Shown one piece after another: positions 10,302 to 29,228 of a stretch of DNA of 64,000 nucleotides. Every line of letters starts with the position of its first letter. The first letter of the stretch is position 1. Origin of the DNA: Solirhodobacter olei (GTDB taxonomy: Bacteria; Pseudomonadota; Alphaproteobacteria; Rhodobacterales; Rhodobacteraceae); NCBI RefSeq assembly GCF_004010155.1, contig NZ_RRYH01000009.1, forward strand, positions 62,001 to 126,000, read 5' to 3'. The notes below the pieces were generated by a model. The model searched no databases. It was not told the DNA's origin and saw nothing but the letters and a program-made list of their open reading frames with translations. Both the position numbers and the translations under genes were made by a program.

Positions 10302-11267
10302 TCAGTCCACGTCGATATGGCTGTTGCCCTGCCGCCATTCAGCCTCGAACCCGGTCAGCAAGCGCTTGAGAAGCCCGTCCAGCTCCTCTGCCGGCGCCAT
10401 CGCCACCGCCGTCGACAGCGTCACGTAATCGCCGAAGACGGAATTTCCGTGCGGGAATGCGCGGGCGGCCATGTCCTCGCGCGCGAAGCTGCAGGTCCTC
10501 TGCAGCGGAACCGTTCCCGAGGGGCGCGGCCCGACCACAATGAAGGTCGACCGGTCAAGCGCGGTCAGGATCGACGACAGCGGCGCCGGCGTCGCGGCCA
10601 GAACGCTGGCCACCGTGCGCATCAGCCGATCCGCCTCCTCGCGCCCGTGCTCGGTCTCGTAGGCCGCGAAGGCGTCGATCCGGATCAGCGCCAGGCAGGC
10701 GGAATCGCCGTGCTGGGCGCAGCTCCGCAGCGTCAGGTCGATCACCGCCGCGGAGGCGAGCATCGTATTCGGATCGACCAGCGCCTTGTCGAGCACGCCC
10801 CGCTGCAGGTCCCGGCTCTGTCGCTCCAGTTGCTCCTCTCGCGCGCGCCGCCGCTCCTGCTCGCGCTTCAGCCGCAGAAGCGAGCGGACCCGGGCAAGAA
10901 GCGATATCTGGTCGACGGGCTTGCGCACGAAGTCGTTCGCCCCGGCCATGAAGGCCTGGTTCAGAAGCTCCACGTTTTCGATCGCCGAAAGCATCAGGAT
11001 CGGAAGGTCGCGGTAGCTCGGGTGCAGCCGGATCCGGGCGCAGGTCTCGATCCCGTCGATCTCGGGCAACACGATATCGCAGATCACCAGGTCGAAGGCC
11101 GGCGGAGGGGCCTCAGGGGCGGGCTCGATCCCGAGGATTGCGTAAGCCTCCTGGGCGCTGCGGGCGAAGTCCACGTCGGTAAAGCCGCCGTCCTCCAGGA
11201 AGGCCGCGGTGATATCGGCGGAATCCTCGAAATCGTCGATGATCAGGATCTTGGCGGTGGCACTCAT
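10302..11267 (-). CDS. Response regulator with receiver domain and degenerate GGDEF domain
   Basis: A 321-residue protein. Residues 1-125 form a receiver domain: acidic pocket DD at 11-12, phospho-acceptor Asp64 (VICDIVLPEIDG), Ser94 and Lys116 (RKPVD). A charged coiled-coil linker (about 130-155) leads to a GGDEF-like fold (LIRIDAFAAYETEHGREEADRLMRTVA), but where the active-site GGDEF should be the sequence reads DRSTF. It should therefore not make cyclic-di-GMP; it may bind a nucleotide or partner. It is the last gene of the minus-strand polysaccharide operon, overlapping the membrane-protein gene (ATGA). The HPt protein encoded at the operon's front is a plausible phosphate donor. Confidence 0.85.
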   Translation of the reverse strand: MSATAKILIIDDFEDSADITAAFLEDGGFTDVDFARSAQEAYAILGIEPAPEAPPPAFDLVICDIVLPEIDGIETCARIRLHPSYRDLPILMLSAIENVELLNQAFMAGANDFVRKPVDQISLLARVRSLLRLKREQERRRAREEQLERQSRDLQRGVLDKALVDPNTMLASAAVIDLTLRSCAQHGDSACLALIRIDAFAAYETEHGREEADRLMRTVASVLAATPAPLSSILTALDRSTFIVVGPRPSGTVPLQRTCSFAREDMAARAFPHGNSVFGDYVTLSTAVAMAPAEELDGLLKRLLTGFEAEWRQGNSHIDVD

Positions 11268-12721
11268 GGGCGCGCCTCCAGGTCTGATTGGTACACCCGC
11301 CAGTCCGGGCCGTCATAGATCAGCCGATAACCCGGGGCCCCGGCGGTGAAAAGCCTCGGGAAGGCGCGGCCGAGCCCGTCTGCGCCTCTCACGGATTGCG
11401 CGCTGCGGACCACCAGCACCCGCGCCGTCAGCCGGTGCGTCTGCGCGGCCAGCTGGAAGGCCTCCGCATGCTGCCCGACGATGCCCGCGGCGCTGCCGCG
11501 CTCTGCCACCGCCGCAGGCGCGTCGGCGGCGGAAAAGAGGATGTCGTGCTTGCCGCGCAGCGCCCGGCCCAGTGCCGCCATCTCCGGCGCGGGCGCGGCG
11601 ACCTTATGGCCCTGCGCCGCCGCCCGCCAGCGAAGCGTCGCCGCGCTGCGGTCGGCGAAGACGATGGCGGCGCCGGCCACGAGGGTGAAGAGAAGCGCCG
11701 GCATGACCACCGGCTGCAACCGGCGAAAGCTCGCGACGACCGCCGCCGAGGCGGCCGCCAGCCCGCAGCCCAGGCTTGCCGCCAGGGCCGGCCCGGGCAG
11801 CGTGCCCGTGGCCCAACCGAGGCCAATCACCGCCACCGGCATCCCGAGAGCCGCCACCGCGCCGCTTTGCAGCCCGGCCAGCCGCCTGGCCCGCAGCACG
11901 GCCCAGATCGACAGCGGGCTCATCAGCACCACGCCGACAAGCGCGAGCCCCGCCTGCCGAAGCCCCGCGGGCGCGGCCGGTGGCCAGCCCTGCGGCGCGA
12001 CCAGGAAATGCAGCGGATCGCCGGTGAAGATCCAGTTCACGAACAGGAACCCCAGGCCGGAGAACAGCAGCGGAAAGAGGATCACCAGGTAGGAGCCGCT
12101 CACCGATTGCACCAGCAGGTCCGGCAGCACGATCAGCGCCAGAAACGGCAGGGCCGCCAGCACGATCACCAGCCCGAAGGGCCCCGACGCGCCCAGCAGC
12201 ACCAGCGCGGCCGCGACCAGGATGATGTCGTTGACCCGCGACTTCAGCCGCATGTTGAACATGCCGTAGGCGAGCATCCAGACGCCCCATGCCAGCAGCA
12301 TCGGCTCCACCCCGCCGGCCAGCGCGCGCAGGAACAGCGGGTTCAGCGCCAAGAGCAGCACCGCCAGAAGCCGCGCGCCCCGCCCCAGCCCGGCGTCGCG
12401 AAGGGTCGCGTGCCAGGCAAGCACCAGCGTCGCCGCCAGAAGCGCCACCGGAAACCACGGCGCCGCGGCCCCCAGCATGGGCGCAAGCCCCGCCGCCCCT
12501 GCCATCACCAGGATCGGCGCCGGTGGATAGGCCGTCACCACCTCCCTGAGCGGCGTCTGACCGCCCGCGGCCAGCAGCGCCCGCCCCCAGAGATCGAGCG
12601 CCTCCGTCGAGCGGAAGCCCTGCGCGCCGAGCCAGAGCAGCAGCGCCATGAACCCGGCCAGCGCGACAAGGAACAGCGCCAGCACGCCCCCCCGCGCGGC
12701 GCTCTGCAGCGGCCCGCTCAT
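11264..12721 (-). CDS. Polytopic membrane protein, GT-C glycosyltransferase-like
   Basis: A 485-residue protein with roughly ten hydrophobic helices in its first 370 residues and a soluble C-terminal domain of about 100 residues. A large first extracytoplasmic loop with YPPAPILVMAGAAG after the first helix resembles the GT39/ArnT-like GT-C layout (polyprenyl-linked sugar donors), but I see no decisive catalytic motif. The start ATG at 12721 overlaps the upstream glycosyltransferase stop (ATGA), and its stop overlaps the response-regulator start in the same way. Probable role: transfer or export step in the polysaccharide pathway. Alternative: an uncharacterised transporter-like subunit. Confidence 0.6.
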   Translation of the reverse strand: MSGPLQSAARGGVLALFLVALAGFMALLLWLGAQGFRSTEALDLWGRALLAAGGQTPLREVVTAYPPAPILVMAGAAGLAPMLGAAAPWFPVALLAATLVLAWHATLRDAGLGRGARLLAVLLLALNPLFLRALAGGVEPMLLAWGVWMLAYGMFNMRLKSRVNDIILVAAALVLLGASGPFGLVIVLAALPFLALIVLPDLLVQSVSGSYLVILFPLLFSGLGFLFVNWIFTGDPLHFLVAPQGWPPAAPAGLRQAGLALVGVVLMSPLSIWAVLRARRLAGLQSGAVAALGMPVAVIGLGWATGTLPGPALAASLGCGLAAASAAVVASFRRLQPVVMPALLFTLVAGAAIVFADRSAATLRWRAAAQGHKVAAPAPEMAALGRALRGKHDILFSAADAPAAVAERGSAAGIVGQHAEAFQLAAQTHRLTARVLVVRSAQSVRGADGLGRAFPRLFTAGAPGYRLIYDGPDWRVYQSDLEARP

Positions 12722-14610
12722 CGCGCCGCCACCCGCGCCGGCTGCAGCGCCTTGGCGACTTCGGATGCCGTATGCTTGGACAGCCCGTGCGTGGTCTTCT
12801 CCCAGTAGAACGGCCTGGTCAGAAGCTGCCAAGCCCCCTTCCAGGCTGCCACCGACATCAGCGCCCAGTACCACGGCACAGTCACGCTATAGGGCACCAG
12901 CTCCAGCCATTTCCGCCTAAACGGCGCCAGCATCATCAGGAAGATCAGGACGCCGTTGCCGATCAGCAGATTGAACAGCGCCATGTAAAGAATGGCCGGC
13001 GGGAAGATCTGGTCGAACGCCGTTGTCCCGGTCACGGCCCAGAATGCAAAAAGCGCCCAGAAGACCGGGTTCAAGAGGCCCGAGAGCATGGTGCCCCCGA
13101 TGAAGAAGACGAAACCCAGCACCCCCAGCGGCCCGATGGTCCGCACCAGGTGAATCGGCCGCCGGGTATGGACGAGAAAGGTCTGCATATAGCCCTTGAT
13201 CCAGCGCGAACGCTGCCGGATCCAGTTTCCCTGCGAGACGTTGGCCTCCTCGTAGGTGGTCGAGTCGACCAGGCGCACGCCATAGCCCTTCTGCGTCATC
13301 CGGATGCCCAGGTCGGCATCCTCGGTCACGTTGAACGGGTCCCAGGCGCGCAGTTCGCGCAGCACGTCCATCTTGAAATGGTTCGAGGTGCCGCCCAGCG
13401 GGATCGGGATCCCCAGACGTTCCAGCCCCGGCAGCATCAGGTCGAACCACAGCGAATAGTCCAGCGTGAACAGCCGGGTCAGCCAGTTCTCGTTGCGGTT
13501 ATAGTAGTTCAGCCGGCATTGGATGCAGCCGATGTTGTCCGGCGCCTCGCGAAAGGCGGCGACGACCTTCTTCAGCTGGTCGGGCTCTGGCTTGTCCTCG
13601 GCATCGTAGATGACAAGGTACTCGCCCCGCGCGAAGCGCAGCGCGTAGTTGCAGGCCTTGGGCTTGGTCTGGGGCTGCGAGGGTGGAACACGGATGATCT
13701 CGAAGATCCCCTCCAGCCCGAGCGCCACGGCCGCGTCGATGGTCTCGGTGTCGCCCTCCTCCAGCACGATCTTGATGTCGAGCCGCGCCGTCGGGTAATC
13801 GAGCTTCCTGAGCGCCGAGACCAGGATCGGCAGCACGTCGGGTTCCCGGAACATCGGAACCAGCACCGTGTAGATCGGCAGATCCTCGTCCCGCATCCCG
13901 CGAACCGCCGCCTTCACCTCGCGCGCACGCTGCTGCGCCGCCTGCCCGCCGGCCCAGATAAGCACCGCCTTGAACAGGAAATTTCCGAGGTAGAAGACCG
14001 ACATCACCGCGTTGATCGCAATCAGCGTGACGATCGGCGCGAAGGCAAGCCCCAGCGCCAGCGCCGTCACCAGCGCCCAGCCCACCACCAGTTGCCCGAC
14101 GGTGAAGACGGTCTGTGCCGACATCTCCGGGTCGTGCTCGGCCAGGTCGAACACGGCCCGGCGCGAATAATCGGCGGAAAAGACGTTCTGCAGCGCCCAG
14201 AGGATGTCGAACTTGCTGGTGACCACCAGCGAGACATCGGCCCCCCAGCGCTGGCGGATGAAGAACATCACCTCCGGCCCCGGGCGGGCCGTGGCGATCA
14301 CCAGCCGCCCGTTCTCCTTGCGCCAGGGCATGGTCAGTTCGCGGCTGTAATCGGCGACCTCGTCCTCGCGCAGGAACTCCGGGTTCGGCGCCTCCTTCAG
14401 CAGGCTCACGTAGCGGGTGCCGAAGCGCTCTGCGAGTGACAGGTAATAGCTCGCCGGATCGATCCAGCTGCGGGCCAGCAGCACGTCCGTCAGGCTCGCC
14501 CCCCAGCTCTCGGCCAGCTGCGTCGCCTCGTCCAGCTGCGGCAGCGTGATCAGCCCCTGCTCGATCAGATGGTCGCCCGTCCAGCTGTCCCCGGCGGTCA
14601 GCTCGCGCAT
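12718..14610 (-). CDS. Processive family-2 glycosyltransferase with N-terminal MshEN-like domain
   Basis: About 630 residues, inner membrane. Residues about 10-150 match a GspE_N/MshEN-like fold: two helix repeats (GDHLIEQGLITLPQLDEA and DVLLARSWIDPASYYLSLAERFG) followed by the RLVIATARP strand; MshEN domains can bind cyclic-di-GMP, but the arginine usually opening the repeats is not present. Two helices (about 170-225) precede the GT2 domain, with DAED near 336, TED-AD near 430 and Q(R)xxRW near 466-470, the marks of a cellulose/chitin/hyaluronan-type processive synthase. C-terminal helices form the channel. The BcsB-like partner ends five bases upstream. The start at 14610 gives a clean junction; 14637 is possible. 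Confidence 0.85.
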   Translation of the reverse strand: MRELTAGDSWTGDHLIEQGLITLPQLDEATQLAESWGASLTDVLLARSWIDPASYYLSLAERFGTRYVSLLKEAPNPEFLREDEVADYSRELTMPWRKENGRLVIATARPGPEVMFFIRQRWGADVSLVVTSKFDILWALQNVFSADYSRRAVFDLAEHDPEMSAQTVFTVGQLVVGWALVTALALGLAFAPIVTLIAINAVMSVFYLGNFLFKAVLIWAGGQAAQQRAREVKAAVRGMRDEDLPIYTVLVPMFREPDVLPILVSALRKLDYPTARLDIKIVLEEGDTETIDAAVALGLEGIFEIIRVPPSQPQTKPKACNYALRFARGEYLVIYDAEDKPEPDQLKKVVAAFREAPDNIGCIQCRLNYYNRNENWLTRLFTLDYSLWFDLMLPGLERLGIPIPLGGTSNHFKMDVLRELRAWDPFNVTEDADLGIRMTQKGYGVRLVDSTTYEEANVSQGNWIRQRSRWIKGYMQTFLVHTRRPIHLVRTIGPLGVLGFVFFIGGTMLSGLLNPVFWALFAFWAVTGTTAFDQIFPPAILYMALFNLLIGNGVLIFLMMLAPFRRKWLELVPYSVTVPWYWALMSVAAWKGAWQLLTRPFYWEKTTHGLSKHTASEVAKALQPARVAAR

Positions 14611-14614
14611 CGGC

Positions 14615-16537
14615 TCACCCGCGCCCGCGCCGGGCACGCAGGATGCCCCGCAGAAGAAAGACGAAGCCGAGGCTCAGGATGAGCCAGCCCGCCGCGATCA
14701 GCCACAGCCGGTAACGGATGATCCGGTCCAGCAGCGTCAGCCGCTGAGGATAGCTGATTTCGAACAGCGAAGCCCGGTCGCTGGAAAACGCGAGCTCCGG
14801 CTTGCCACCGTTCAGCACCGCTACATTGGCCTGCCCCGGAAGTTCCGGTTCCGCGCCCGGCGCGCCCTTGCCGAACTGCGCCCCCGGCCGGATCCAAAGG
14901 ACCGCCCGCCCGCCGGGGCGCACCAGCTGCACCACCGTGCGCGCCCTGAGCGCTCCGTCGCCCAGCAGAAGCGTGCCCCGGTCCGTCTTCAGCCGTACCT
15001 CGCCCTTGTCGAAGCGCAGGGCGGGATCGCTGCCCGGCGGCGGCGCGTCCGAGACCCAGACATAGGCCCCCTTATCGGGCGCCGAGGCGCCTTCGGACAG
15101 CCGCAGCGGCGTTTCGGTCCCGACCAGCCCGGCCAGCACCCGCGCGATACCGGTCAGTGCCGCGGGCCCGGTCTCCCCGGTCACCACCGTCACGCCCGTC
15201 CGGTATAGCGGCGCGAGCCCGGCGAAGGTCCGGACCGGCCCAGCCGGGGCAAGGCGGAAGGCGCTCGACGGCAGAAGCTGCGCCGGATAGGCCTGCGGCT
15301 TCAGCTTGCAGGCCCCGCCCGCGACATGGCGCGTCACCGTAACCGCCAGCGTGTTCTGCAGCGTTTGCAGCCCCTCGGGCACGTCGAGGCGGAGACGCGT
15401 CGGCCCGTCCCTGCGCGCCACGGCGCTGCCGAGCAGCAGCCCGTTCAGCGTCACGCTTACGACAGGCGGGCTCGGCTCGCCATCGGCCGCCACCGCCACG
15501 TCGACATCCGCCCCGGCAAGCCGCGTCCCCGCCGGCAGGCGCGCCGCGGGCAGTGCAGCGTTCCAGGTCGCCCGCCGCAGGACCTCGCGCAGGCCGGTGT
15601 CGGCGCCGAGCGCGGCAAAGCTCACCCGGTCCGGCAGCGCACCCTTGGCCCACTCTGCCACATCGCCCAGATGTCCTGCCGTCGCCAGCGCCCGCCACTG
15701 ACCCGACAGCAGCCGTATCGCCGCGACCGGATCCTTGCCCCCGACCGCGATCGCCGGGCGCCCGCCCTCACGCACGGCCTGCAGCGCAGGCGCGCTCTCC
15801 GGCGCGAAGCGGATCGCCGCGCGGCGCCAGTCGCCGCTGGCATCGGCGGGTGCGGCCGTAGCCGCCAGCCGTGCGTCGGGATCCATCGCCATCATCAGAA
15901 CCGCTGCCGCCAGCTGCCCGGTCGAGGGCGCTTGGGGCAGCAGCAGGTCATTGGCCCGTGGCATCGCCGCCGCGACCGCGGCCACGGTGTCGAGCTTCGC
16001 GGGATCGAGCTCCTCGACCAGCCCGCCCTCCGGCGCGAAGGTCAGATAGGACCCCGGCGCCCCGTCGTCGCTGCAGCCCGCTTGGGTCTGGTTCGCGCCA
16101 TAGACGATCCGGACATGGACGAAGCCGTCCCGGACAGCCGTCAGCGGCACCGGCAGGGCGATCATCGTGCCGCTCGCCATCTGCTGCGGCAGCACGCCAG
16201 TGGCAAGGGGCTGGCCATCCACCTCCACCCGGAACTCCCGCCGCGCGGGATCGGAGGACGCCGCGCTATAGGGCAGCTCCAGCCGCAGCGCGGTGACGGC
16301 ACCGGGCACGGGAACCGGAAAATAGAGGTCCGCCTGCCCCGAAAGCCCTGTCAGCGACAGGCCCCCCGCATAGCCGAGCGCCGCCAGGGAATAGTTGCGG
16401 GTCAGGATGGAAGCGGGTGCAGGGGCCGCTGAGGGTACCGCGGATGCCGTGGTCACAGCTCCGCCGGCCTGCGCATCGGCAGCTGCCGCCGGCCCCACCG
16501 CGACGAAAACGGCGGCCGCGGCGAATGCCACGGCCAT
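14615..16537 (-). CDS. BcsB-like periplasmic subunit of a polysaccharide synthase
   Basis: A 640-residue exported protein anchored by one C-terminal helix (LWLIAAGWLILSLGFVFLL, about 610-633) with a short basic tail, after an N-terminal signal peptide (MAVAFAAAAVFVAVGPAAAA). The body is beta-rich with carbohydrate-binding-like segments (ADLYFPVPVPGAV...LRLELPYS, HVRIVYGANQTQAGCSDD), the BcsB plan: two CBD-like and flavodoxin-like repeats, then a helix that docks on the synthase. The ATG at 16537 has AGGTGGGG upstream; a GTG at 16558 is an alternative. Sequence identity to true BcsB appears low. It lies between the HPt gene and the synthase gene, fitting periplasmic guidance of the polymer. 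Confidence 0.72.
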   Translation of the reverse strand: MAVAFAAAAVFVAVGPAAAADAQAGGAVTTASAVPSAAPAPASILTRNYSLAALGYAGGLSLTGLSGQADLYFPVPVPGAVTALRLELPYSAASSDPARREFRVEVDGQPLATGVLPQQMASGTMIALPVPLTAVRDGFVHVRIVYGANQTQAGCSDDGAPGSYLTFAPEGGLVEELDPAKLDTVAAVAAAMPRANDLLLPQAPSTGQLAAAVLMMAMDPDARLAATAAPADASGDWRRAAIRFAPESAPALQAVREGGRPAIAVGGKDPVAAIRLLSGQWRALATAGHLGDVAEWAKGALPDRVSFAALGADTGLREVLRRATWNAALPAARLPAGTRLAGADVDVAVAADGEPSPPVVSVTLNGLLLGSAVARRDGPTRLRLDVPEGLQTLQNTLAVTVTRHVAGGACKLKPQAYPAQLLPSSAFRLAPAGPVRTFAGLAPLYRTGVTVVTGETGPAALTGIARVLAGLVGTETPLRLSEGASAPDKGAYVWVSDAPPPGSDPALRFDKGEVRLKTDRGTLLLGDGALRARTVVQLVRPGGRAVLWIRPGAQFGKGAPGAEPELPGQANVAVLNGGKPELAFSSDRASLFEISYPQRLTLLDRIIRYRLWLIAAGWLILSLGFVFLLRGILRARRGRG

Positions 16538-16560
16538 CCTGCTGCCCCACCTCAACACAT

Positions 16561-16896
16561 TCAGTCTGCTTGTTGTGCAACCGATTGTCGAAGAGCCTGC
16601 ACGGAAGCGGCGATCATATCAAGCCGCTCGGCTCTGCGGGGCTCATCTTCCAGCCGGACGAGGCCGACGCGCCGCTCGGCATCCCGGGCAGCCGCGCCCA
16701 GCGCGGAATACCCCAATGTCGGTGCGGTACCGGCAAGGTCGTGCAGGTCGCGCTCCAGCTTGCTGAAGGCCTCCTCCGGGCTCCGCGCCGAAAGCGAACC
16801 CGCGTCGACCTCGAGTTGATCGAGTCGCTCCGGCAGCCGCACCGCGAAGCGGTTGGCCACCCGTTGTAGCGCCTGAGATAAGGTCGGCTGACTCAT
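16561..16896 (-). CDS. HPt (histidine phosphotransfer) domain protein
   Basis: A 111-residue helical protein with an HPt signature around residues 48-62 (RDLHDLAGTAPTLGY) and candidate phospho-histidine His52. Stand-alone HPt proteins relay phosphate between a hybrid kinase and a response regulator. The start at 16896 follows a GGGGGC site; a longer upstream frame to 17058 has no support. It is the first gene of the minus-strand polysaccharide operon, whose last gene encodes a receiver-domain protein, so the pair may form a local phosphorelay; no kinase is encoded in the window. Confidence 0.8.
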   Translation of the reverse strand: MSQPTLSQALQRVANRFAVRLPERLDQLEVDAGSLSARSPEEAFSKLERDLHDLAGTAPTLGYSALGAAARDAERRVGLVRLEDEPRRAERLDMIAASVQALRQSVAQQAD

Positions 16897-17650
16897 CTTC
16901 TGCCCCCGTTCATATTCCATCCGGATATCTGGCAGGCGACTTTGACGAAACGAGGGCGGAAACCCGTCAAAACCTCGGGAAGGATTCGGAAAGTACCGGG
17001 GTCGCCCCCGGTCCGCGACGTTCCCGCTGCACCGCCTGGGGCCTGACCTGCGCAGCACCCGGCGCCCGGCCCGGCGAAATGGGGCAATTTACCGACTGTT
17101 AACGTTCTGAACGTCAACTGGAGGGGGGAAGTGATTCGCCTCAGGCGTGACCGGCATCGTTTTCGGTTCGCGCGGTAATGTTTTGGAAACCCGCGCATTG
17201 GCGTGCAACCCGAAATCTTGCGCGCGCCCGGCAAATCCTAAATCTCGACAACGCGATTCAACTTTAACGAGCATTCTTCGTTTTGAAGCCGGCCGCGCAG
17301 GCATCGGAGCGCGCACGCTTCACGGCGACGGGAAACGGTCGCCCCGGGGCGTCGCTCGCCACCCCCGCCTCTCGGCAAGCGCGGACCCGCCTGTCATGTT
17401 CAGGAATTTATTAACAAAGAATTAATGGCTTAGGATGCCTCCCGACCTCCACGCCGCGCTGCACGTCGCCTGCGGGGCACGCGCCGCCGCCCGGCTCGGC
17501 CGGGCCGATCCGGGGCCAGCTCCCGCGCCGAAGAGAAAACATCCTTTGGTTGTACCCACTTAACCGGCGGAACGGAGACCCGAATTCTCCGCCCTCCGCG
17601 CCCCGACGCGCGGCTCGACAAGGCGGAACCCGTTCCAAAATGTGGCCGTT
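16897..17650. promoter_or_regulatory. Divergent promoter region of the polysaccharide locus
   Basis: About 750 bases without a supported gene between the divergent HPt operon and the deacetylase-synthase gene. It contains lower-GC islands, notably about 17395-17435 (TTTATTAACAAAGAATTAAT) and 17085-17120, suited to promoters. Small open frames here lack ribosome sites and similarity. No clear riboswitch or terminator was recognised. Confidence 0.5.
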
Positions 17651-20600
17651 ATGCGGCACAAAATGTCATATTCGAGACGGCTTCGCGCCAAATTGGGCAA
17701 TCCTTTGTCCTTCAGTCTCTTTCCGGCCCGGGGCTGGGAGGCGCCGGAGGGCCGCCAGGACCACGTTTTTTCGACCTCCAGCAAGCTGCGCAAGAAGTCG
17801 ATTCTCACCGCACTGGCCATGGTGTGCTTCATCTGCCTGGCCTCGGCTCTCAGCTTCACCCTGCCGGGCCTGCTCAATGGCGGCGCCATCTCCGGCTCCA
17901 TCGCCCGTTCCAGCGCGATGGCGGAACCGATCGGCGCCGAGGCTCAGGCCACCACGGGCTCCACCACGCGCTACCGCCTCACCGGCAAGCTCGGCGCAGC
18001 GCCGGCGGCCAAGGGGGTCACCCCTCAGGACATCGGCGCCTGCGGCACGGCGCGCCCGGCAAACCGCAACCGCATCGGCCTGCCCAAGGCCCCGACCGTC
18101 TACGGCCTCCTGCCCTATGACGAGGACTGGAACTACCTCTCGCTCGCCAGCGCCTGCGGCGGCCTGAACGTGCTGATGCCGGAATGGTTCCGCCTCAGCC
18201 CGAAGGGGCTCGAATCCCTCGGCACTTCCACCGACCCGGAGGACCCCAAGCAGCAGGTCCTGGCCGAGGTCGCCCGGATCCACGACAACGTTCGCATCGT
18301 GCCGGTCATCACCGTCGCCAATGCGCCCGCCTCGGACGACGCGCGCATCCTGGCCAACGGCCTTCCGGGGCCGAAGGCCATCGCAGCCCTCGCCACCCTG
18401 GCCGAGTCCGAGCATTACGACGGCTACGGCATCGACCTGTCCGGCCTCAGCGCCCAGAATGCCAACCTGCTGGCGCCGTTCCTGACACAGCTCCACGCCG
18501 CGCTGAAGGCCAAGGGCGTCGGGCTCGACCTGATCGCCCAGGCTGCGACGCTCGCCGATCTCGACCCGGCGCTGACCGCGGCGGCCGACAAGGTGGTGGT
18601 CAAGCTCTACCAGGCCCGCGACGGCGGCGCGACGCCCGCCCCGCTGGCCTCCGCCGCCGAGATGAAGGCGCAGATCGCCCGGGCCAAGGCCCGCATCGGC
18701 GCCGGCCGGCTGGTTCTCGCCTTCGGCGCGGGCGGCAGCGACTGGAAAGCCGGCAGCGACGCCCCTGCACCGGTGTCCTTCCAGCGCGCCATGACCCTGG
18801 CCCACCGCTTCAACGGGACCATCGGCTTCGACCGCGCCTCGATGAACCCCTATGTCACCTACACCGACGACAAGGGCGCCCCGCACAAGATCTGGATGCT
18901 CGACGCCGTGACCACCTACAATGGCATCGTCGAGGCCGCGCGGCAGGGAATCTCCGATGTCGCGGTCTGGAACATCGGCCAGGAAGACCCCAGCATCTGG
19001 CGGCTGCTGAACGCCCGCCTGCCCCAGGGCCAGGACTGGCTGAGCCAGCTGACCGGAATCAACCTGGGCCATCTCGCCGTCTATTACGGCAAGGGCGTCT
19101 TCCTTCACATCAGGAGCGAGCCGCGCGAAGGCCGCCGCCAGATCTCGCATGACGAGCAAAGCGGCCTGCTTTACGAACGCTACGCCAAGACGCCGCTGCC
19201 CTACCTGGTGCGCCGCTGGGGACAGACCAAGCCGAAGACCATCGCGCTGACCTTCGACGATGGCCCCTCCGCGGCCTACACGCCCGGCGTGCTCAAGGCG
19301 CTGCGCGAGAACCACGTCCACGCCACCTTCTTCGAGATCGGCAAGCACCAGCTCCTTTACCCCGGCATCGTCCGCGAGGTGCTGCGCGACGGCAACGAGA
19401 TCGGATCCCACACCTTCTTCCACCCGCACATGGGGCTGATCTCCGACTACCGCGTCCGCACCGAGCTTGACGTCCAGCAACGCCTGATGGCCACCGAGAC
19501 CGGCCGCCACCTTGTGCTCTTCCGCGCGCCCTATTTCCGCGGCCTTGGGCCGCTGGAACCCGCCCGCCTGCACAAGCTCGCGCTGATCGACTCGCTGGGC
19601 TTCATCATCACGTCGAGCCAGATCGTCTCGCCCGACTGGGAGGTGAAGAACGCCCAGGACCTCGCCAACTACGTCATCTCTCAGGTCGAGGCCGGCGACG
19701 GCAGCATCATCCAGATGCATGACGCCGGCGGCAACCGCTCCGCCACCGTGGCCGCGCTGCCGATCATCATCCAGACGCTGAAGGCCCGCGGCTACAGCTT
19801 CGGCACCGTTTCCGACGCGATCGGCGCCACCCGCGCCGAGATGATGCCGCAGAGCGACGGCTGGTTCGCCGACATCGTCGCGTTCTTCCTGGTCCGCAAC
19901 ATTGCCGACTACCTGACGATCTTCCTCGCCGCCGGCATCGGCTTCGGCGTCGTCCGGATCCTTGCCATCGGGGTGATCTCGACGCTGCGCAAGCCGCACC
20001 AGCCGACCGATCCGGACTTCCTGCCCGGCGTCACGGTGCTGATCCCCGCCTTCAACGAGGCCAAGGTCATCACCCGCACCGTGCAGGCCGCGCTCGACAG
20101 CGACTACCCGGATTTCGAGGTGCTCGTCATCGACGACGGCTCCTCCGACGAGACCGCGACGCTGGTGGAGGACACCTTCGCCGATGATCCGCGCGTCCGC
20201 GTGCTGCGCCAGCGCAACGGCGGCAAGTGGAAGGCGCTGAACGCCGGCATCCGCGCCGCCAGCAACGGCTATGTCGTCTGCATCGACGCCGACACCAGCA
20301 TCGACAAGGGCGCGATCCGCCGGATGATGCCGCATTTCTCCGACCTCAGCGTCGGCGGCGTCGCAGGGAATGTGAAAGTCGGCAACCGCGTCAACGCGAT
20401 CACCCGGCTGCAGGCGCTGGAATACGCGATCTCGCAAAGCGTCGACCGCCGTGCCTTCGAATATCTGAACGCCATCACCGTCGTGCCCGGGGCGCTCGGC
20501 GCCTGGCGGATCCGCGCGCTCGACGTCGCCGGTCATTACTGCGACCACACGCTCGCAGAGGATGCAGACCTCACTCTCACCGTCGCCCGCGCCGGCTACC

Positions 20601-21169
20601 GCATCGTCTTCGAGGAACATGCGATCTCCTATACCGAGGCCCCCGACCGGGTGAGCCAGGTGATGCGCCAGCGCCTGCGCTGGAGCTTCGGGATGATGCA
20701 GGCCGGCTGGAAACATCGCGGCGCCTTCCGCCAGGGCCATCCGCTGGGGCTGATCGCCCTGCCCGATCTCGCCATCTTCGGGGTCTTCGTGAACCTGATC
20801 GCCCCGCTGGTCGACGCGATGCTGCTCGTGAACATCCTCACGCTGGCCTACACGGCGCTGAATGGCGGCTCGATCCTGCCCGATCACGCCGACGAGATGA
20901 TCATCCTCAGCTACCTGCTGCTGCCGCTGCTCGACCTGACGGCCGCCATCTTCGCCTTCTGGCTTGACGGAACCGAGGACCGCCGCCTTCTGTGGTATTT
21001 CCCTCTGCAGAAAATCTATTACCGCCAGATCCTCTATATCTCGGTGCTTCGGGCGGCCTGGCGCGCAGTGACGGGAAGGCTCGCGCTTTGGACGAAGATG
21101 GATAGAACTGCGACCGCGCTGAGTCCGCAAACCTACCAGACCGTAAGGATCAAGAATACCGAAGCCTGA
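17651..21169 (+). CDS. Trifunctional fusion: GH18-like domain, polysaccharide deacetylase, processive GT2 synthase
   Basis: About 1172 residues in three domains. A membrane helix near 55-75 is followed by a GH18/spore-germination-like TIM barrel (about 130-465) whose expected DxxDxDxE motif reads DGYGIDLSGL near 257, so the catalytic acid is missing. A NodB-type deacetylase (about 525-735) has TFDDGP near 535, SHTFFHPH near 586, RAPYF near 625 and MHDAGG, so it looks active. After a helix near 755-780 comes a GT2 domain (LIPAFNE, DDGSSDE, AEDADL, QRLRW near 1006) and further helices. Predicted to polymerise a GlcNAc-type sugar and deacetylate it outside. No good ribosome site precedes 17651; 17642 (GTG) or 17663 are alternatives. 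It is divergent from the BcsB-like operon. Confidence 0.85.
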   Translation: MRHKMSYSRRLRAKLGNPLSFSLFPARGWEAPEGRQDHVFSTSSKLRKKSILTALAMVCFICLASALSFTLPGLLNGGAISGSIARSSAMAEPIGAEAQATTGSTTRYRLTGKLGAAPAAKGVTPQDIGACGTARPANRNRIGLPKAPTVYGLLPYDEDWNYLSLASACGGLNVLMPEWFRLSPKGLESLGTSTDPEDPKQQVLAEVARIHDNVRIVPVITVANAPASDDARILANGLPGPKAIAALATLAESEHYDGYGIDLSGLSAQNANLLAPFLTQLHAALKAKGVGLDLIAQAATLADLDPALTAAADKVVVKLYQARDGGATPAPLASAAEMKAQIARAKARIGAGRLVLAFGAGGSDWKAGSDAPAPVSFQRAMTLAHRFNGTIGFDRASMNPYVTYTDDKGAPHKIWMLDAVTTYNGIVEAARQGISDVAVWNIGQEDPSIWRLLNARLPQGQDWLSQLTGINLGHLAVYYGKGVFLHIRSEPREGRRQISHDEQSGLLYERYAKTPLPYLVRRWGQTKPKTIALTFDDGPSAAYTPGVLKALRENHVHATFFEIGKHQLLYPGIVREVLRDGNEIGSHTFFHPHMGLISDYRVRTELDVQQRLMATETGRHLVLFRAPYFRGLGPLEPARLHKLALIDSLGFIITSSQIVSPDWEVKNAQDLANYVISQVEAGDGSIIQMHDAGGNRSATVAALPIIIQTLKARGYSFGTVSDAIGATRAEMMPQSDGWFADIVAFFLVRNIADYLTIFLAAGIGFGVVRILAIGVISTLRKPHQPTDPDFLPGVTVLIPAFNEAKVITRTVQAALDSDYPDFEVLVIDDGSSDETATLVEDTFADDPRVRVLRQRNGGKWKALNAGIRAASNGYVVCIDADTSIDKGAIRRMMPHFSDLSVGGVAGNVKVGNRVNAITRLQALEYAISQSVDRRAFEYLNAITVVPGALGAWRIRALDVAGHYCDHTLAEDADLTLTVARAGYRIVFEEHAISYTEAPDRVSQVMRQRLRWSFGMMQAGWKHRGAFRQGHPLGLIALPDLAIFGVFVNLIAPLVDAMLLVNILTLAYTALNGGSILPDHADEMIILSYLLLPLLDLTAAIFAFWLDGTEDRRLLWYFPLQKIYYRQILYISVLRAAWRAVTGRLALWTKMDRTATALSPQTYQTVRIKNTEA

Positions 21170-21272
21170 CCTGGCGGCCACTGAACAAGCAATTAAAGAA
21201 GCCGATCCAATTCAAACTATATAGATCGGCACAAGGGAACGAAAAGCGAAACATATATTCGCGTTTCCGAAT

Positions 21273-21292
21273 CGGATCCCCTCGGGGATCCG
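21273..21292. promoter_or_regulatory. Strong palindrome upstream of a small ORF
   Basis: CGGATCCCC (21273-21281) and GGGGATCCG (21284-21292) form a perfect 9-base inverted repeat with a 2-base centre, in otherwise AT-rich DNA, ending about ten bases before a GAGGGAGACAAGG ribosome site. It may be an operator or a leader hairpin; no T-run follows, so it is a poor terminator. Confidence 0.4.
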
Positions 21293-21315
21293 CAGCAAAC
21301 GAGGGAGACAAGGCC

Positions 21316-21543
21316 ATGAACGACAACAAGAAAAGCGGGCCGCGCCGAATCACTTCGACCGGAAACTTCGGCAGGGCTCGAAACAGGTCCAGAACTCGCG
21401 TCGCAATTCAGGATCGCCTGCGCGACCCCGGCCCGTTTACCGGCTACATCTCTGAATCCGGCCGGTATTCATTTCGCCCTGTGGGCATATTGGGATATCT
21501 CGACCACAAAAGCCTCGACGCGGAAACAATAACGAACACGTGA
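21316..21543 (+). CDS. Small basic hypothetical protein
   Basis: A 75-residue, strongly basic N-terminal half (KKSGPRRITSTGNFGRARNRSRTR) followed by a glycine/tyrosine-containing half. A very good ribosome site (GAGGGAGACAAGG) precedes the ATG, the main support for it being real. No domain is recognised. It lies between the synthase fusion and the epimerase gene, downstream of a strong palindrome, in lower-GC DNA than its neighbours. It may be a regulator or a spurious frame. Confidence 0.4.
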   Translation: MNDNKKSGPRRITSTGNFGRARNRSRTRVAIQDRLRDPGPFTGYISESGRYSFRPVGILGYLDHKSLDAETITNT

Positions 21544-21615
21544 TATATATCACTGGGAACTCATCGTATAAACTGAGAAAAATCCAGCTACCTGGACGGG
21601 AATGGGAGATCTGGG

Positions 21616-22854
21616 GTGAACATTATAATTCTTGGTGGCGACGGCTATTTGGGTTGGCCTCTGTCTCTGCGCCTCGCGCAAGGCGGCCATCGCGTTCTGA
21701 TCATCGACAACCTGCTGCGCCGCAAGCTGGTGGCAAGCTGCGGGGCGACTCTTCTCGACCTGCCAACACCGCAGGAACGCATTGATTTTGCCAACAAAAG
21801 GCTTGGCTGCGACATCAGCTTCCTGGAAGCCGACGCCAGCGAGGCGGACCTCGGCGCGGTCTTCTCCAGCTTCAAGCCGGACCTGATCTACAATCTCGCG
21901 CAACAGCCCTCGGCGCCCTATTCCATGAGCAGCCGCATGGCGGCGCTGCAGACGATCCGGAATAACGAGCTGTCGAACATGAATATCATCTGGTCCGTTC
22001 GGGATTACGACCCGCGGATCCCCGTTGTAAAAATGGCGTCCTTCGGCGCTTATGCGAATTGCGGAATAGATATCGAATGCGGGTATTTCAAACCCGAGAT
22101 CAACAAGAAGAAAGTCTCGCAACCGATTCTCTTCCCGATGTCCGCCGACGACATCTATCACACGACGAAAATCAATGACGTCCAGATGAACTCCATGGCT
22201 TGCCGGGAATGGGGGATGAATATCGTAGAGGTCATGCAATCCACGATATTCGGTGTCTGTGAAGAAGGTCTGTCCGGCGAGAATGCGCTTTATACCCGTT
22301 ACGACTACGACGCGATGTTCGGCACCGTCCTCAACCGCTTTATTCTACAGGCGGTCAGCGGATTGCCGATCAGCGTTTATGGCACCGGACATCAAAGAAC
22401 CGGGCTGATGTCGCTCGGCGCGGCGGTGCGGTCTCTTTCGTCCCTGACCACCTCGCCTTCCCCGAGCGGACACCGCTTCATCAATCACGTGACCATATCT
22501 GACATGTCGGTTCTTGAAATTGCCCAATCGGTTCAGGCCAGCGCCCGGAAAATGGGGATCCAGGCTGAAATCACCGTCGGCAGCGAGAATCCGCGGGCAG
22601 AGAACGTGCAAAGAAAGCAGACCTACGGCGTGCAAAGCAGCATCGCGCGCAAGGAAAGCATCGAGGCCTTCTTCCCCGAAATCGCCACTCATATCCTGAA
22701 ACGTTCGGCCTTCATCGACCCGAACATGCTGGTCCCGAATGTCTCCTGGGGCACGCCGCAAACGGCAAAGCCGGTGGAACCCGCGCGGCCGGTCCGCCCG
22801 CATCGGCCCGCGGCCGGGTTCGAGGGGCTCCAGGTCGTCGGCGGCCTCGCCTGA
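21616..22854 (+). CDS. UDP-sulfoquinovose-synthase-like NAD-dependent epimerase (SQD1/Agl3-like)
   Basis: A 412-residue short-chain-type nucleotide-sugar enzyme starting with GTG at 21616 behind GGGAG. The Rossmann motif is GGDGYLGWPLS (residues 7-17); the active pair is in YHTTK near 177-181. It shares many SQD1-specific blocks: IDNLLRRK, QQPSAPYSM, YDYDAMFGTVLNRF, VSGLPISVYGTG and a final MLVPNVSW. SQD1 makes UDP-sulfoquinovose from UDP-glucose and sulfite; here the SQD1 catalytic threonine position (GTMGEYG block) reads ASFGAYA, so serine replaces threonine. The proline-rich C-terminus beyond MLVPNVSW is extra. Base composition is lower in GC than around it. Placed in a polysaccharide locus, it may supply a sulfosugar or a related UDP-sugar. 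Confidence 0.75.
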   Translation: MNIIILGGDGYLGWPLSLRLAQGGHRVLIIDNLLRRKLVASCGATLLDLPTPQERIDFANKRLGCDISFLEADASEADLGAVFSSFKPDLIYNLAQQPSAPYSMSSRMAALQTIRNNELSNMNIIWSVRDYDPRIPVVKMASFGAYANCGIDIECGYFKPEINKKKVSQPILFPMSADDIYHTTKINDVQMNSMACREWGMNIVEVMQSTIFGVCEEGLSGENALYTRYDYDAMFGTVLNRFILQAVSGLPISVYGTGHQRTGLMSLGAAVRSLSSLTTSPSPSGHRFINHVTISDMSVLEIAQSVQASARKMGIQAEITVGSENPRAENVQRKQTYGVQSSIARKESIEAFFPEIATHILKRSAFIDPNMLVPNVSWGTPQTAKPVEPARPVRPHRPAAGFEGLQVVGGLA

Positions 22855-22881
22855 GGCGCACACCAGCCCTGGTCGGCGCCC

Positions 22882-25323
22882 CTATCCGGGCGCCTGCCAG
22901 GCGAGCATGTAGGCGATGGCCGACAGGATCACGCCATTGGTGTTGAGGTCCGAATAGCCCTCGCTCGGCGCACCACTCTTGGCGCGGATGGAGGAGGCGA
23001 AGCCCAGGTCCTTGATCCGCGCCTGCGCGCGCACGTATTCGACCAGCGCATGCGAATAGGCATGGCTGTGGGTGGCCCTCCAGAGATAGGCCGCCTTGCT
23101 GCTGATATAGGTCGGGACCGCCTGATCCCGCCCTTTCCGGTTCAGGATCGCGTCCAGCCCCGATTGCAGGCTCCACCGCTTGCTTTCGGCGCCGACATCC
23201 AGCCCCTCGTAAACGAACCAGGGATCATGGCTGATCGAGGATTCGCTCGGGCAGACATAAACCCCGGCCTCGCGATGGGTCCGAAGCTGTTCGGAGAACA
23301 GCATCCGGGCGAGGTAGGTAGCCGGCTGCGAATAGGGCATCTCCATGATCTCGTAAAGCAGCGGCTCCGGCCCCAGCGGCCCGATCTTCGCCGTGGCGTA
23401 AAGCAGCCGCATTTCCCAATCGGCATCGCTCTCGTCGCCCCGCCGCGGCAGCGGAGATGTGGAATTTATCCCGAACTGCTCGAATGCCCGCACCGCGAAA
23501 TGCGCGCCCTGCGACAGGTTGAATTCGCTCTGACGGCCGTCGACAACCTCGGTAAGCCGGCCGTCCACGACCGTATCCGCCAGTTGCCAGCCGTCGAGCT
23601 TCTTGGCGATCACCGGCGCCAGCTCCGGCTCCTCGCGCAGAAGCGCCAGTGCCGAAAGGAGCCGCCCCACGTCGGAGGTGTTGAAATCCGCCCTCAGGGT
23701 GCGGCCGCTTCGCACGCTGACCAGGCTGCTTGGCAGATGCAGCCCGGTGATGCGGCGCCGCGGCAGATGCTCTATGACGGCGGTGCAGCGGCTGACGAAC
23801 TCCGCCTTCGGGATCAGGCCCAGGAAATAGGCGCCGCGGATGCCGACAAGCTGGTTGCCGATGTCCCACATCGCCACTTCGGCGTTCACTGTCATGTCGC
23901 CACCGCCGACCTGAACCGCGGCCATGCAAAGCCCGGTGCGCCGGTCGGTGAACCGCTCGATATAGCGCCAGGCCGCCCGCGCATCCTCCATCAGCGCGTC
24001 CTGGTCGAGCGGCACGCCCGACTGCTCGGCGCTGCCCTGCGCCCCGGCGGCGACGGCAGAGCGGACAGCGATCACCGGATCCGCCGGAACCACCTGATCT
24101 ATATAGGCTTTCAGCGAGACGGGCCGAACCTGCCCGCCGGCACTGACCTGCACGATCGCGCGCTTCAGCAGGTCCCGGTCCGCAGGCGCCCGCAGGGCCT
24201 CCGCCTCGATCACCAGCACCGTGTCGGCCCCCTCCCGTCCGATGGCGGCAAGCGACGCCAAGTCCGCCACGGCCGAAAGCCGGCGAACCCTTCCCAGCTC
24301 CAGCCGTCCGCGCGCGTCGATCCCCGGCACGCCGTCGCCCTGCAGCAGCAGGTCCACCGGCAGGACCGCCCCTGCGACCGCCTGGGGCAGCGCAAGCTTC
24401 CCCTCGGCCCCGGTCGCCCCTTCCAGAAGCCCGGCCGGGATCCCGGCGGCGGCCAGCTCGGCCACGAAACCCTCGGCGAAGGGGCGATCCTTCGGCACGC
24501 GCGCAACCAGCGCCACGGCCAGCATCGCCTCCCGCCGCTTGCTCAGCCCGCCGGACAGGGCGCTTGCCGGGGTGAAGGTGATATCCGCACCGGCTTTGGC
24601 GGTATCCGTCTGCTGCAGTTCCAGCCCCAGCCAGGGGTCATGGCCCGGCTGGCCGCTCATGTCGATCTCGATGATCTGTGGCGCCGTGCGGCTGACCTGG
24701 GCCCGCGCCATCGGCAGCAGGCGGGTCCTGACATCGGCATAGGGCAGCGTCCGCCCTCCCGACAACACAAGAACCCCGGCGCCGCCTTCACTCAGTGCCG
24801 AGGTCTTCGCGCCCGCGGGCAGTTGCAGCAGCTGCCGGAACCCCGCAGCCCGCAGCCCGGCCGTGGGGACGAGCTTCGGCACCTCCCGCGTCACGATGGT
24901 GACGCCAGAGGCCGCCGCCGCCCCGGCGGCTCCGGAAAACAGCGCCGCCAGCCCCGCGCGTGCCTTGCGCGCCGCGCGGGCCTGGAAATAGGGCTCTGGC
25001 ACAGCGAGATCGGCGGCAAAGGGCAGGATCTCCACCCCCTCGCCCGCCAGCGCGGCGAGCGCGACGAGGATCGGGCCGGCCCCCGGCTTGCGCGGCGGGA
25101 AGAGACCCGGGTCCAGCGCGATGGAAAACGGGATCTGCGCCCGCAGGAGCGGCGCGGTGGCGCGCTTCAGTTCGGCCAGCGGAAGATCCGGTCCGATGCC
25201 GGAAAGGATCAGGATATCCCGCCCCCCCGCCACCTGCGCGGCAAGCGCCCTCGGCACGAGCCAGCCTGAAGCCGACGCGCCGAGAAGGCCCTGCAGGACC
25301 GTCCGTCTGGCTATGGACTTCAT
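22882..25323 (-). CDS. Exported DUF3131-domain protein of the polysaccharide locus
   Basis: An 813-residue protein with a twin-arginine-type signal (MKSIARRTVLQGLLGASASG, cleaved near ALAA). The N-terminal half contains barrel-like segments (DILILSGIGPDLPLAELKRA, FSIALDPGLF) reminiscent of a degenerate deacetylase/hydrolase fold; the C-terminal half from about 470 (AWRYIERFTDRRTGL...MWDIGNQLVGI...FNTSDVGRLLSAL...YATAKIGPLG) is a DUF3131 module with the look of an alpha/alpha barrel glycan-active domain. The ATG at 25323 precedes the signal directly. It converges on the epimerase gene, leaving 27 bases. Probable role: periplasmic processing or binding of the polymer; activity unknown. Confidence 0.7.
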   Translation of the reverse strand: MKSIARRTVLQGLLGASASGWLVPRALAAQVAGGRDILILSGIGPDLPLAELKRATAPLLRAQIPFSIALDPGLFPPRKPGAGPILVALAALAGEGVEILPFAADLAVPEPYFQARAARKARAGLAALFSGAAGAAAASGVTIVTREVPKLVPTAGLRAAGFRQLLQLPAGAKTSALSEGGAGVLVLSGGRTLPYADVRTRLLPMARAQVSRTAPQIIEIDMSGQPGHDPWLGLELQQTDTAKAGADITFTPASALSGGLSKRREAMLAVALVARVPKDRPFAEGFVAELAAAGIPAGLLEGATGAEGKLALPQAVAGAVLPVDLLLQGDGVPGIDARGRLELGRVRRLSAVADLASLAAIGREGADTVLVIEAEALRAPADRDLLKRAIVQVSAGGQVRPVSLKAYIDQVVPADPVIAVRSAVAAGAQGSAEQSGVPLDQDALMEDARAAWRYIERFTDRRTGLCMAAVQVGGGDMTVNAEVAMWDIGNQLVGIRGAYFLGLIPKAEFVSRCTAVIEHLPRRRITGLHLPSSLVSVRSGRTLRADFNTSDVGRLLSALALLREEPELAPVIAKKLDGWQLADTVVDGRLTEVVDGRQSEFNLSQGAHFAVRAFEQFGINSTSPLPRRGDESDADWEMRLLYATAKIGPLGPEPLLYEIMEMPYSQPATYLARMLFSEQLRTHREAGVYVCPSESSISHDPWFVYEGLDVGAESKRWSLQSGLDAILNRKGRDQAVPTYISSKAAYLWRATHSHAYSHALVEYVRAQARIKDLGFASSIRAKSGAPSEGYSDLNTNGVILSAIAYMLAWQAPG

Positions 25324-25548: not shown

Positions 25549-26318
<770 letters not shown>

Positions 26319-26319
<1 letters not shown>

Positions 26320-27146
26320 CAGCGCGCCCAATCCGCATCGCGTTCGAGAACCGGCAGCGGTCGACGGTCGCCCTCGATCCGCGGCAGGCAGTTGAAAAGA
26401 CCCTGGGTGTAGGGGTGACGCGCCTTGGTCAGCTCCGAGGCACGCAGCTCTTCCACCACCTTGCCGGCATACATCACCAGCACCCGGTCGCAGAAGGACG
26501 AGACAAGCCGCAGGTCGTGGCTGATGAAGATCAGCCCCATGCCGCGCTCGCGAACCAGCCGGTCGAGGATGCGAAGCACCTCGATCTGCACGGTGACGTC
26601 GAGCGCCGATGTCGGCTCGTCGGCGATCAGCAGATCCGGCTCGGTGATCAGCATCATGGCGATCATCGCCCGCTGGCCCATGCCGCCCGAAAGCTCGTGC
26701 GGATAGGCGCGGAAGACGCGCTCCGGCTCGCGGATCTGCACCGCCTCCAGCATGGCAAGCGCCTGGGCCCTGGCATCCCGCGCCGCGGTGCCGCGTGCGG
26801 CAGCCTCCATCAGCTGCCGGCCGACGGTCATCACCGGGTTGAGCGAGAATTTCGGATCCTGCATGACCATCGAGATCCGCTTCCCCCGGATCGCCCGCCA
26901 TTCGGCGGCCGAGGCATGGCGCAGGTCCTTGCCGTCGAAGGTCAGCCGCCTGGCTTCCGTCCTGCCCGGAGGCGGCGTCAGCCCGAGGATGGCGCGCCCC
27001 GTCTGGCTCTTGCCCGAGCCGCTCTCGCCGACGATGCCCAGCCGCTCGCGGCCAAGCGTGAAGCTGACCCCGCGCACCGCCTCCACCGGACCCGAGCGGG
27101 AGGGGAAGCTGACCCGCAGGTCCTCGACGTCCAGAAGCGCGCTCAT
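26319..27146 (-). CDS. Dipeptide/oligopeptide-type ABC transporter ATPase (DppD/OppD-like)
   Basis: A 275-residue ATPase with Walker A GESGSGKSQ, Q-loop MQDPKFSLNPVMTV, signature ELSGGMGQR, Walker B LLIADEP and SHDLRLV, followed by the family's oligopeptide C-terminal segment (HPYTQGLFNCLP). The lysine-next residue in Walker A is S then Q rather than the more common T or S pair, a usual variant in DppD. GGAGGGTGAA precedes the ATG at 27146. A 112-base gap separates it from the permease gene upstream. Confidence 0.9.
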
Positions 27147-27258
27147 TTCACCCTCCCGGAGCCCTGCCCCGCCGACGATACGGGCCGGCCGAAGGCGCCG
27201 GCATGCTGCCGAAGCGCGCTCCGCGGGGAATGGTTTTGCCAGGATGAAAACATGGGCG

Positions 27259-28167: not shown

Positions 28168-29227
<1,060 letters not shown>

Positions 29228-29228
<1 letters not shown>

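What the first reader, a model, noticed from the sequence alone, without database searches (positions are those of the whole stretch)
10302..25323. A two-sided polysaccharide locus with two processive synthases and a built-in phosphorelay
The minus-strand operon (HPt, BcsB-like, MshEN-GT2, GT-C-like, receiver/degenerate GGDEF) and the divergent genes (GH18-like/deacetylase/GT2 fusion, SQD1-like epimerase), with a convergent DUF3131 protein, seem to form one cell-surface polymer system. Seen: gene order, overlaps, domains. Established: processive GT2 enzymes with BcsB-type partners make cellulose-like polymers, and NodB-type deacetylases act on GlcNAc polymers. Inference: a partly deacetylated amino-polysaccharide, perhaps carrying a sulfosugar. 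I know of no described system with this exact set.
Basis: partly seen in the sequence, partly recalled or inferred. Interest (0 to 1): 0.8.

Follow-up and report, generated by a model that had tools for sequence, protein, structure and literature searches.

The report
Two adjacent but separate polysaccharide modules
Two different bacterial machines for making surface sugar polymers lie side by side in this genome; one belongs to a family linked to biofilms and iron-coated stalks whose product may be a mannose-type, hemicellulose-like chain, and here it carries its own phosphate-relay proteins.

Summary
They are not one system. Minus-strand module A (Hpt, BcsB, MshEN-GT2, GT-C, receiver/dead GGDEF) and module B (GH18-like/deacetylase/GT2 fusion plus DUF3131) occur separately: in 119 other genomes of the family A is in 3, B in 6, both in 1, on different contigs. 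None of 80 module A loci from a genome scan shows DUF3131, the SQD1-like gene or the fusion within the flanks held. Module A's core is the sfz1-2-3 / xagB-xagC type of iron-oxidiser stalks and Xanthomonas biofilms; its GT2 groups outside the family, so it was probably acquired laterally. Hpt and a receiver fused to a dead GGDEF are conserved parts of the alphaproteobacterial version. A GH113 gene sits at 40 of the 80 loci (12 are Xanthomonas), and Xanthomonas GH113 enzymes are published endo-beta-mannanases; so I predict a beta-(gluco)mannan-like product for module A and a partly deacetylated GlcNAc-type product for module B. Verdict: new variant of a known kind (A) beside a second, little-studied module (B).

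The parts
10302..11267 (-). Module A: response-regulator receiver fused to a degenerate GGDEF domain (321 aa)
   Evidence: receiver Asp kept in 40 of 40 and GG[DE]EF intact in 0 of 40 loci, window included
11264..12721 (-). Module A: GT-C-fold membrane protein (485 aa), homologue by profile and position of Sfz3/XagC
   Evidence: (25% identity to the PV-1 protein); no Pfam hit; no invariant acid in the first loop among 29 aligned rows
12718..14637 (-). Module A: processive GT2 synthase with N-terminal MshEN-like domain (639 aa), homologue of Sfz2/XagB; ATG start at 14610 also possible
14615..16558 (-). Module A: BcsB-like periplasmic partner (647 aa), homologue of Sfz1
16561..16896 (-). Module A: Hpt phosphotransfer protein (111 aa)
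   Evidence: an Hpt gene lies within 5 kb on the same strand at 23 of 84 loci
17642..21169 (+). Module B: GH18-like (no catalytic Glu) / CE4 deacetylase / PgaC-like GT2 fusion (1175 aa)
21616..22854 (+). SQD1-like NAD-dependent sugar-nucleotide enzyme (412 aa); GC 58%, GC3 74% against 84-91% in the longer genes tested (Hpt 71%); not a conserved part of either module
22882..25323 (-). Module B: DUF3131 protein (813 aa)

Best explanation
Two independent synthase modules have come to lie back to back. Module A (10302-16896) is an xag/sfz-type system: a BcsB-like protein and a BcsA-like GT2 make and export a beta-linked chain, most likely a beta-1,4-(gluco)mannan-like polymer; a GT-C-fold membrane protein modifies or assists it; the Hpt protein and the receiver/dead-GGDEF protein form a phosphorelay branch that switches synthesis, the dead GGDEF acting as a docking rather than a catalytic domain. 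In this genome the kinase must act from elsewhere. Module B (17642-21169 and 22882-25323) is a one-polypeptide synthase plus de-N-acetylase for a PNAG/chitosan-like chain, with DUF3131 as partner. The SQD1-like gene is a third, unlinked acquisition. Shown: gene content, separateness, conservation, origin of the module A synthase outside its host family. Inferred: polymer identities, phosphorelay control, role of each partner.
For: Separateness: P0003 at 60% or more in G013, G088, G107 only, BcsB-like in the same three, fusion + DUF3131 side by side in G052, G055, G070, G074, G075, G107; both in 1 of 119, Fisher p 0.145; 0 of 80 scan loci show DUF3131, SQD1-like or full fusion (29 of the 80 have shortened flanks); the fusion occurs without DUF3131 in five genomes outside the family. 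Module A identity: locus L115 (M. ferrooxydans PV-1) shows BcsB-GT2-GT-C followed by frames whose lengths fit sfz1-sfz6 (PMC8250860); Kato's bcsB-xagB-xagC-xagD cassette (PMC4643136). Polymer: GH113 at 40 of 80 scan loci, Pfam-confirmed in the 7 tested, single copy and at module A in the 6 of 7 genomes that have it; Xanthomonas GH113 are endo-mannanases, the X. citri one most active on glucomannan (PMC9032380); phosphomannose isomerase near sfz (PMC8250860). Phosphorelay; a histidine kinase in the locus at 22 of 39 other receiver-gene loci, ten of them of operon type (two of the ten are one genome). Origin: AU test rejects a clade with the family's rows, p 1.4e-6.
Against: GH113 is absent from this genome, from the ten Rhodobacteraceae-type module A loci and from Henriciella, so the mannan inference rests on homologues 49-78% identical in the synthase. 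12 of the 40 GH113 loci are Xanthomonas, so the count overstates independent cases. No histidine kinase matched in the 64 kb window. None of the eight proteins is an outer-membrane exporter; the rest of the genome was not searched for one. The GT-C protein lacks an invariant first-loop acid. Phosphorelay control of the synthase has no direct evidence. MshEN motif loss does not track the phosphorelay genes (p 0.59 for both motifs).
Confidence: 0.6

Rival explanations
1. One reading: all eight genes form one system in which two synthases build one partly deacetylated, perhaps sulfosugar-bearing polymer.
For: Contiguity and compact arrangement in this genome; both synthases and the deacetylase have intact motifs.
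Against: Modules occur apart; in G107, the only other genome of 119 with both, they are on different contigs; co-occurrence not above chance; SQD1-like gene beside neither module in the loci fetched; the module A synthase has a different origin from its host family.
Confidence: 0.06
2. Module A makes cellulose or another beta-glucan and is simply a divergent cellulose synthase.
For: BcsB fold match; cellulose synthases are the only PDB sequence matches of the GT2 at E 1e-8 or better.
Against: Far below the cellulose synthase cut-off (45.5 against 699 bits); no PilZ match among the eight proteins; the linked hydrolase of relatives is GH113, a mannan-acting family.
Confidence: 0.25
3. The module A synthase is controlled by c-di-GMP through its MshEN domain, as in NfrB, and the Hpt/receiver pair acts on something else, for example transcription.
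For: Pfam MshEN 36.6 bits; NfrB precedent (PMC8669469); Xanthomonas homologue L098 just reaches NCBI's c-di-GMP motif cut-off (38.2 against 38).
Against: Window protein is below that cut-off (28.2 against 38) and fails the published relaxed 24-residue motif in both halves; however 60 of the 79 other proteins with a full N-terminus also show no match, so the test is weak.
Confidence: 0.3
4. The GT-C protein is a transferase that decorates an otherwise plain chain, the GH18-like and DUF3131 proteins are accessory binding proteins, and the product cannot be predicted from genes.
For: GT-C fold; GH18-like domain without catalytic Glu.
Against: GT-C catalytic acid not conserved (the rule is recalled); the GH113 linkage gives a specific prediction.
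Confidence: 0.2

Closest known systems
sfz1-sfz2-sfz3(-sfz4) cluster of Mariprofundus and sfb of Ferriphaselus (PMC8250860; CDS9-12 in PMC4643136)
   Same: BcsB-like, MshEN-GT2 and GT-C-like genes in the same order; GT2 about 50% identical.
   Different: Window has Hpt and receiver/dead-GGDEF genes on the flanks and no GH113 (sfz4); sfz5 and sfz6 were not searched for.
xagABCD of Xanthomonas (PMC3609779, PMC3528676)
   Same: GT2 about 54% identical followed by a GT-C-like gene; biofilm role published.
   Different: No BcsB upstream within the flank in the Xanthomonas loci; GH113 (very probably xagD, inferred) present there, absent here; transcriptional control by Clp there.
NfrBA of E. coli (PMC8669469)
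   Same: GT2 joined to a MshEN domain.
   Different: Domain order reversed; NfrA/YbcH partners; c-di-GMP binding shown there, motif not met here.
PgaB-PgaC (PNAG) and NodB-NodC
   Same: Module B fusion joins a CE4 deacetylase with a PgaC-like GT2 (183 bits to PgaC, 104 to NodC).
   Different: Below the cut-offs (422, 550); single polypeptide; inactive GH18-like domain instead of PgaB's hydrolase domain (the latter recalled); DUF3131 partner.
SQD1 (UDP-sulfoquinovose synthase)
   Same: Best PDB and NCBIfam relative; Tyr-x-x-x-Lys kept, Thr to Ser at the third catalytic position (the roles are recalled).
   Different: 278.7 bits against a cut-off of 575.

Membership tests
xag/sfz-type synthase cluster | BcsB-like + MshEN-GT2 + GT-C-like genes adjacent and in order | tested here: met
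xag/sfz-type synthase cluster | GH113-type hydrolase (sfz4/xagD) | tested here: not met
   0 matches in own genome, none in window; also absent from the Rhodobacteraceae-type and Henriciella relatives. So a core member without the hydrolase
xag/sfz-type synthase cluster | Needed for biofilm or stalk | not testable with these tools
   No experiment possible
MshEN c-di-GMP receptor | Two 24-residue motifs, relaxed form of PMC5013675 | tested here: not met
   0 of 2 motifs in the window protein
Diguanylate cyclase | GG[DE]EF signature | tested here: not met
   DRSTF in the window; intact in 0 of 40 loci
Response regulator | Phospho-acceptor Asp and KP motif in the receiver | tested here: met
Cellulose synthase BcsA (TIGR03030) | Equivalog cut-off 699 bits | tested here: not met
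   45.5 bits
BcsB | BcsB fold over the length | tested here: met
   Foldseek E 2.7e-27; TM (query) 0.53-0.58 for the six 9fmt chains
GT-C glycosyltransferases | GT-C fold | tested here: met
   20 of the top 21 PDB matches are GT-C enzymes by title, but best E only 4.8e-3 and TM (query) below 0.5
GT-C glycosyltransferases | Acidic catalytic residue in first periplasmic loop (recalled rule) | tested here: not met
   No invariant acid there in 29 aligned rows
GH18 | Catalytic Glu of DxxDxDxE (recalled) | tested here: not met
   Ser in the window; absent in 9 of 9 DUF3131-linked fusions
CE4 deacetylase | Conserved motifs (set recalled) | tested here: met
UDP-sulfoquinovose synthase | NCBIfam equivalog cut-off 575 | tested here: not met
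   278.7 bits

The most novel reading that the evidence does not exclude
The alphaproteobacterial hpt-bcsB-gt2-gtC-receiver operon is a beta-(gluco)mannan synthase gated directly by a phosphorelay through a dead GGDEF domain instead of by c-di-GMP, and the whole xag/sfz family, including the twisted stalks of iron oxidisers, makes beta-(gluco)mannan.
Probability: 0.25. Interest if true: 0.75.

Novelty: new variant of a known kind. Interest (0 to 1): 0.5.

Why it matters
The polymer of the xag genes was called uncharacterised (PMC3528676) and the genetic basis of twisted stalks unresolved (PMC8250860). The GH113 link gives a specific, cheap test: does a GH113 mannanase cut it? If so, bacteria make hemicellulose-like matrices widely, and the alphaproteobacterial branch offers a case where a cellulose-synthase-like machine may be switched by phosphorelay.

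Tried and rejected
One-system reading: rejected on synteny (see report). c-di-GMP motif loss as a mark of phosphorelay takeover: tested and not supported (both motifs: 2 of 37 with the receiver gene, 1 of 43 without, p 0.59); a looser count of one or more motifs (4 of 37 against 15 of 43) is not corrected for kinship and I do not rely on it. Orthology with P0003 of the GT2 that is near-universal in the family (a match in 109 of 120 genomes; mostly 32-44% identity over the aligned part): rejected; in the five regions read (L053-L057) it has the same frame, resembling carA by eye, on one side and no BcsB match. My first AU test held eight family rows and the window together but left out L076, which nests among them; I repeated it with L076, and it is the repeat that I cite. 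DUF3131 literature: three papers, one mention each (listing only). Searches for the fusion architecture: 0 papers and 2 papers, not on point by title. Search for a published Hpt/BcsB operon: 58 papers with three of four terms, 15 listed, none evidently about it from titles. Rfam: only a tRNA. Whether the 15 kb is one insertion (empty-site comparison) was not tested.
Full report
OBSERVATION. The eight genes are present at the stated places with the stated domains. Fold checks support the two weak ones: P0002 is GT-C-like (20 of the 21 best PDB matches are GT-C enzymes by title, best E 4.8e-3, so a fold match and not a close relative), P0004 is BcsB-like over its length. Catalytic motifs of both GT2 domains and of the deacetylase are intact. 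The GH18-like domain is unlikely to be a working hydrolase: the catalytic Glu is Ser.

ONE SYSTEM OR TWO? In 120 genomes of the family (own included, one per genus), the module A synthase at 60% identity or more is in G013, G088 and G107 besides the own genome, and BcsB-like in exactly the same three. The full-length fusion is in G052, G055, G070, G074, G075 and G107 (G013 has only its GT2 part), and the six strong DUF3131 matches besides the own ones are in exactly those six, beside it; nine further genomes have weaker DUF3131 matches. Both modules are in 1 of 119, on different contigs, not above chance (p 0.145). Among six congeners BcsB-like is in 0 and the fusion in 1 at 41%. In the class sample the fusion is in 8 of 337 genomes, five outside the family, where no DUF3131 lies beside it in the stretches read, one of which is cut by a contig start. 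The own genome has a second, 41% identical fusion-DUF3131 pair on another contig. A small secreted-looking protein (here c8) is a third neighbour of module B at seven loci, including the own second copy and the congener, but not in the window or G107. The SQD1-like gene matched in 29 of 324 class genomes at E 1e-30 or better (own included), best other identity 39%, and at none of the other fetched module A or B stretches; its GC3 is 74% against 84-91% for the longer genes tested.

MODULE A. The core BcsB - GT2 - GT-C is widespread: of 84 loci (window, 3 family stretches, 80 scan loci) GT-C lies within 5 kb on the same strand in 80, BcsB in 60, the receiver/GGDEF gene in 40, Hpt in 23 (several contigs are cut short, and L085 and L044 are one and the same). 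It includes the locus of Mariprofundus ferrooxydans PV-1, whose frames fit the published lengths of sfz1 to sfz6, Ferriphaselus R-1, and Xanthomonas (xagB, xagC). Papers: sfz/sfb genes are candidates for twisted stalks (PMC8250860: abstract, passages, section 17; PMC4643136: passages); xag genes contribute to biofilm in an rpfG mutant of X. oryzae pv. oryzicola (PMC3609779: passages) and direct an uncharacterised polysaccharide in X. campestris (PMC3528676: passages).

POLYMER. Sfz4, called family 10 in PMC8250860, scores as Pfam GH113 (158 bits), as do six further relatives. A profile from it finds a partner at 40 of the 80 scan loci, in Alpha-, Beta-, Gamma- and Zetaproteobacteria, 12 of the 40 being Xanthomonas. 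It finds none in the window or in L042-L053: three family module A loci, eight module B or fusion-related loci and one other GT2 locus. In 6 of 7 module A genomes tested GH113 occurs once, and its position falls inside the module A locus fetched; Henriciella has none; 0 of 14 control genomes pass the cut-off. PMC9032380 (passages and section 9) reports two Xanthomonas GH113 proteins as endo-mannanases, the X. citri one most active on glucomannan, and its text does not contain xag. Since the three Xanthomonas genomes tested hold one GH113 each, at module A, those enzymes are very probably XagD; this is inferred, I did not compare the accessions. The sfz neighbourhood also has a phosphomannose isomerase (PMC8250860). 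Hence the prediction of a beta-(gluco)mannan-like chain. I did not see this link stated in searches (15, 12 and 15 papers listed of 15, 244 and 897 found), nor in the passages read; the lists are partial. This genome lacks GH113, so here the inference is by homology of the synthase.

CONTROL. At the 40 loci with the receiver/GGDEF gene the phospho-acceptor Asp is kept in all 40 and the cyclase signature in none: a conserved non-cyclase. A histidine kinase matches in 22 of the 39 other such loci and in 1 of the 44 module A loci without the gene (L111). In ten (one genome twice) a kinase of high score and a lone receiver directly follow the receiver/GGDEF gene; of these I scanned two kinases, with HisKA/HATPase and dCache matches, the second dCache match below cut-off. 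The kinase profile was built from these loci. The window has no match to it in 64 kb. The MshEN-like N-terminus does not meet the published relaxed c-di-GMP motif (0 of 2), but 60 of the 79 other full-length proteins show no match either, so c-di-GMP binding is doubtful, not excluded.

ORIGIN. In a tree of 66 of 84 synthases (18 near-copies or fragments left out) the window sits with Sphingomonadales, Henriciella and Rhodobium, while nine family-type rows form their own branch (support 100); holding the window with those nine is rejected (log-likelihood 92 lower, AU p 1.4e-6, quick tree). Module B fusions linked to DUF3131 form one side of a supported branch, and all nine lack the GH18 Glu while four of five without DUF3131 keep it: one change on the tree, so suggestive only.

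VERDICT. Real and well read at gene level; not one system. Module A is a variant of the xag/sfz type equipped with phosphorelay proteins; module B is a fused deacetylase-synthase module with DUF3131; the SQD1-like gene is incidental.

Noticed in passing
L053 8596-10563 (own genome C23:20751-22457) and L054-L057: A second MshEN-GT2, without a BcsB match beside it, is near-universal in the family (a match in 109 of 120 genomes at E 1e-20) and has the same frame (resembling carA by eye) beside it in the five regions read.
   Followed up: partly
L052 3656-10589 (own genome C47): Second module B (c8, fusion, DUF3131), its fusion about 41% identical to the window's.
   Followed up: yes
L046, L047, L048, L049, L050, L052, L144 (c8 frames): Unnamed small secreted-looking protein (one member scanned: no Pfam or NCBIfam hit) is a frequent neighbour of the fusion-DUF3131 pair; missing in the window. 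In L048 it is split over two frames.
   Followed up: partly
window 17642-21169; L045-L050, L052, L139-L144: GH18-like catalytic Glu lost in all nine DUF3131-linked fusions but kept in four of five fusions without DUF3131.
   Followed up: partly
L115 13391-14341 and 39 other loci: GH113 gene tied to xag/sfz-type synthases; the published sfz4 label was family 10.
   Followed up: yes
L051 8811-10556 (G013): Free-standing 582-codon frame matching only the GT2 part of the fusion (40%).
   Followed up: no
window 5428-9780 and 25549-30826: Two tandem oxidoreductase-like genes (clustered with each other) and an aminomethyltransferase-like gene (by eye) flank module A; an ABC-transporter-like cluster (by eye) flanks module B.
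   Followed up: no
window 32015-32101 (-): tRNA gene, the only Rfam match in the window.
   Followed up: no
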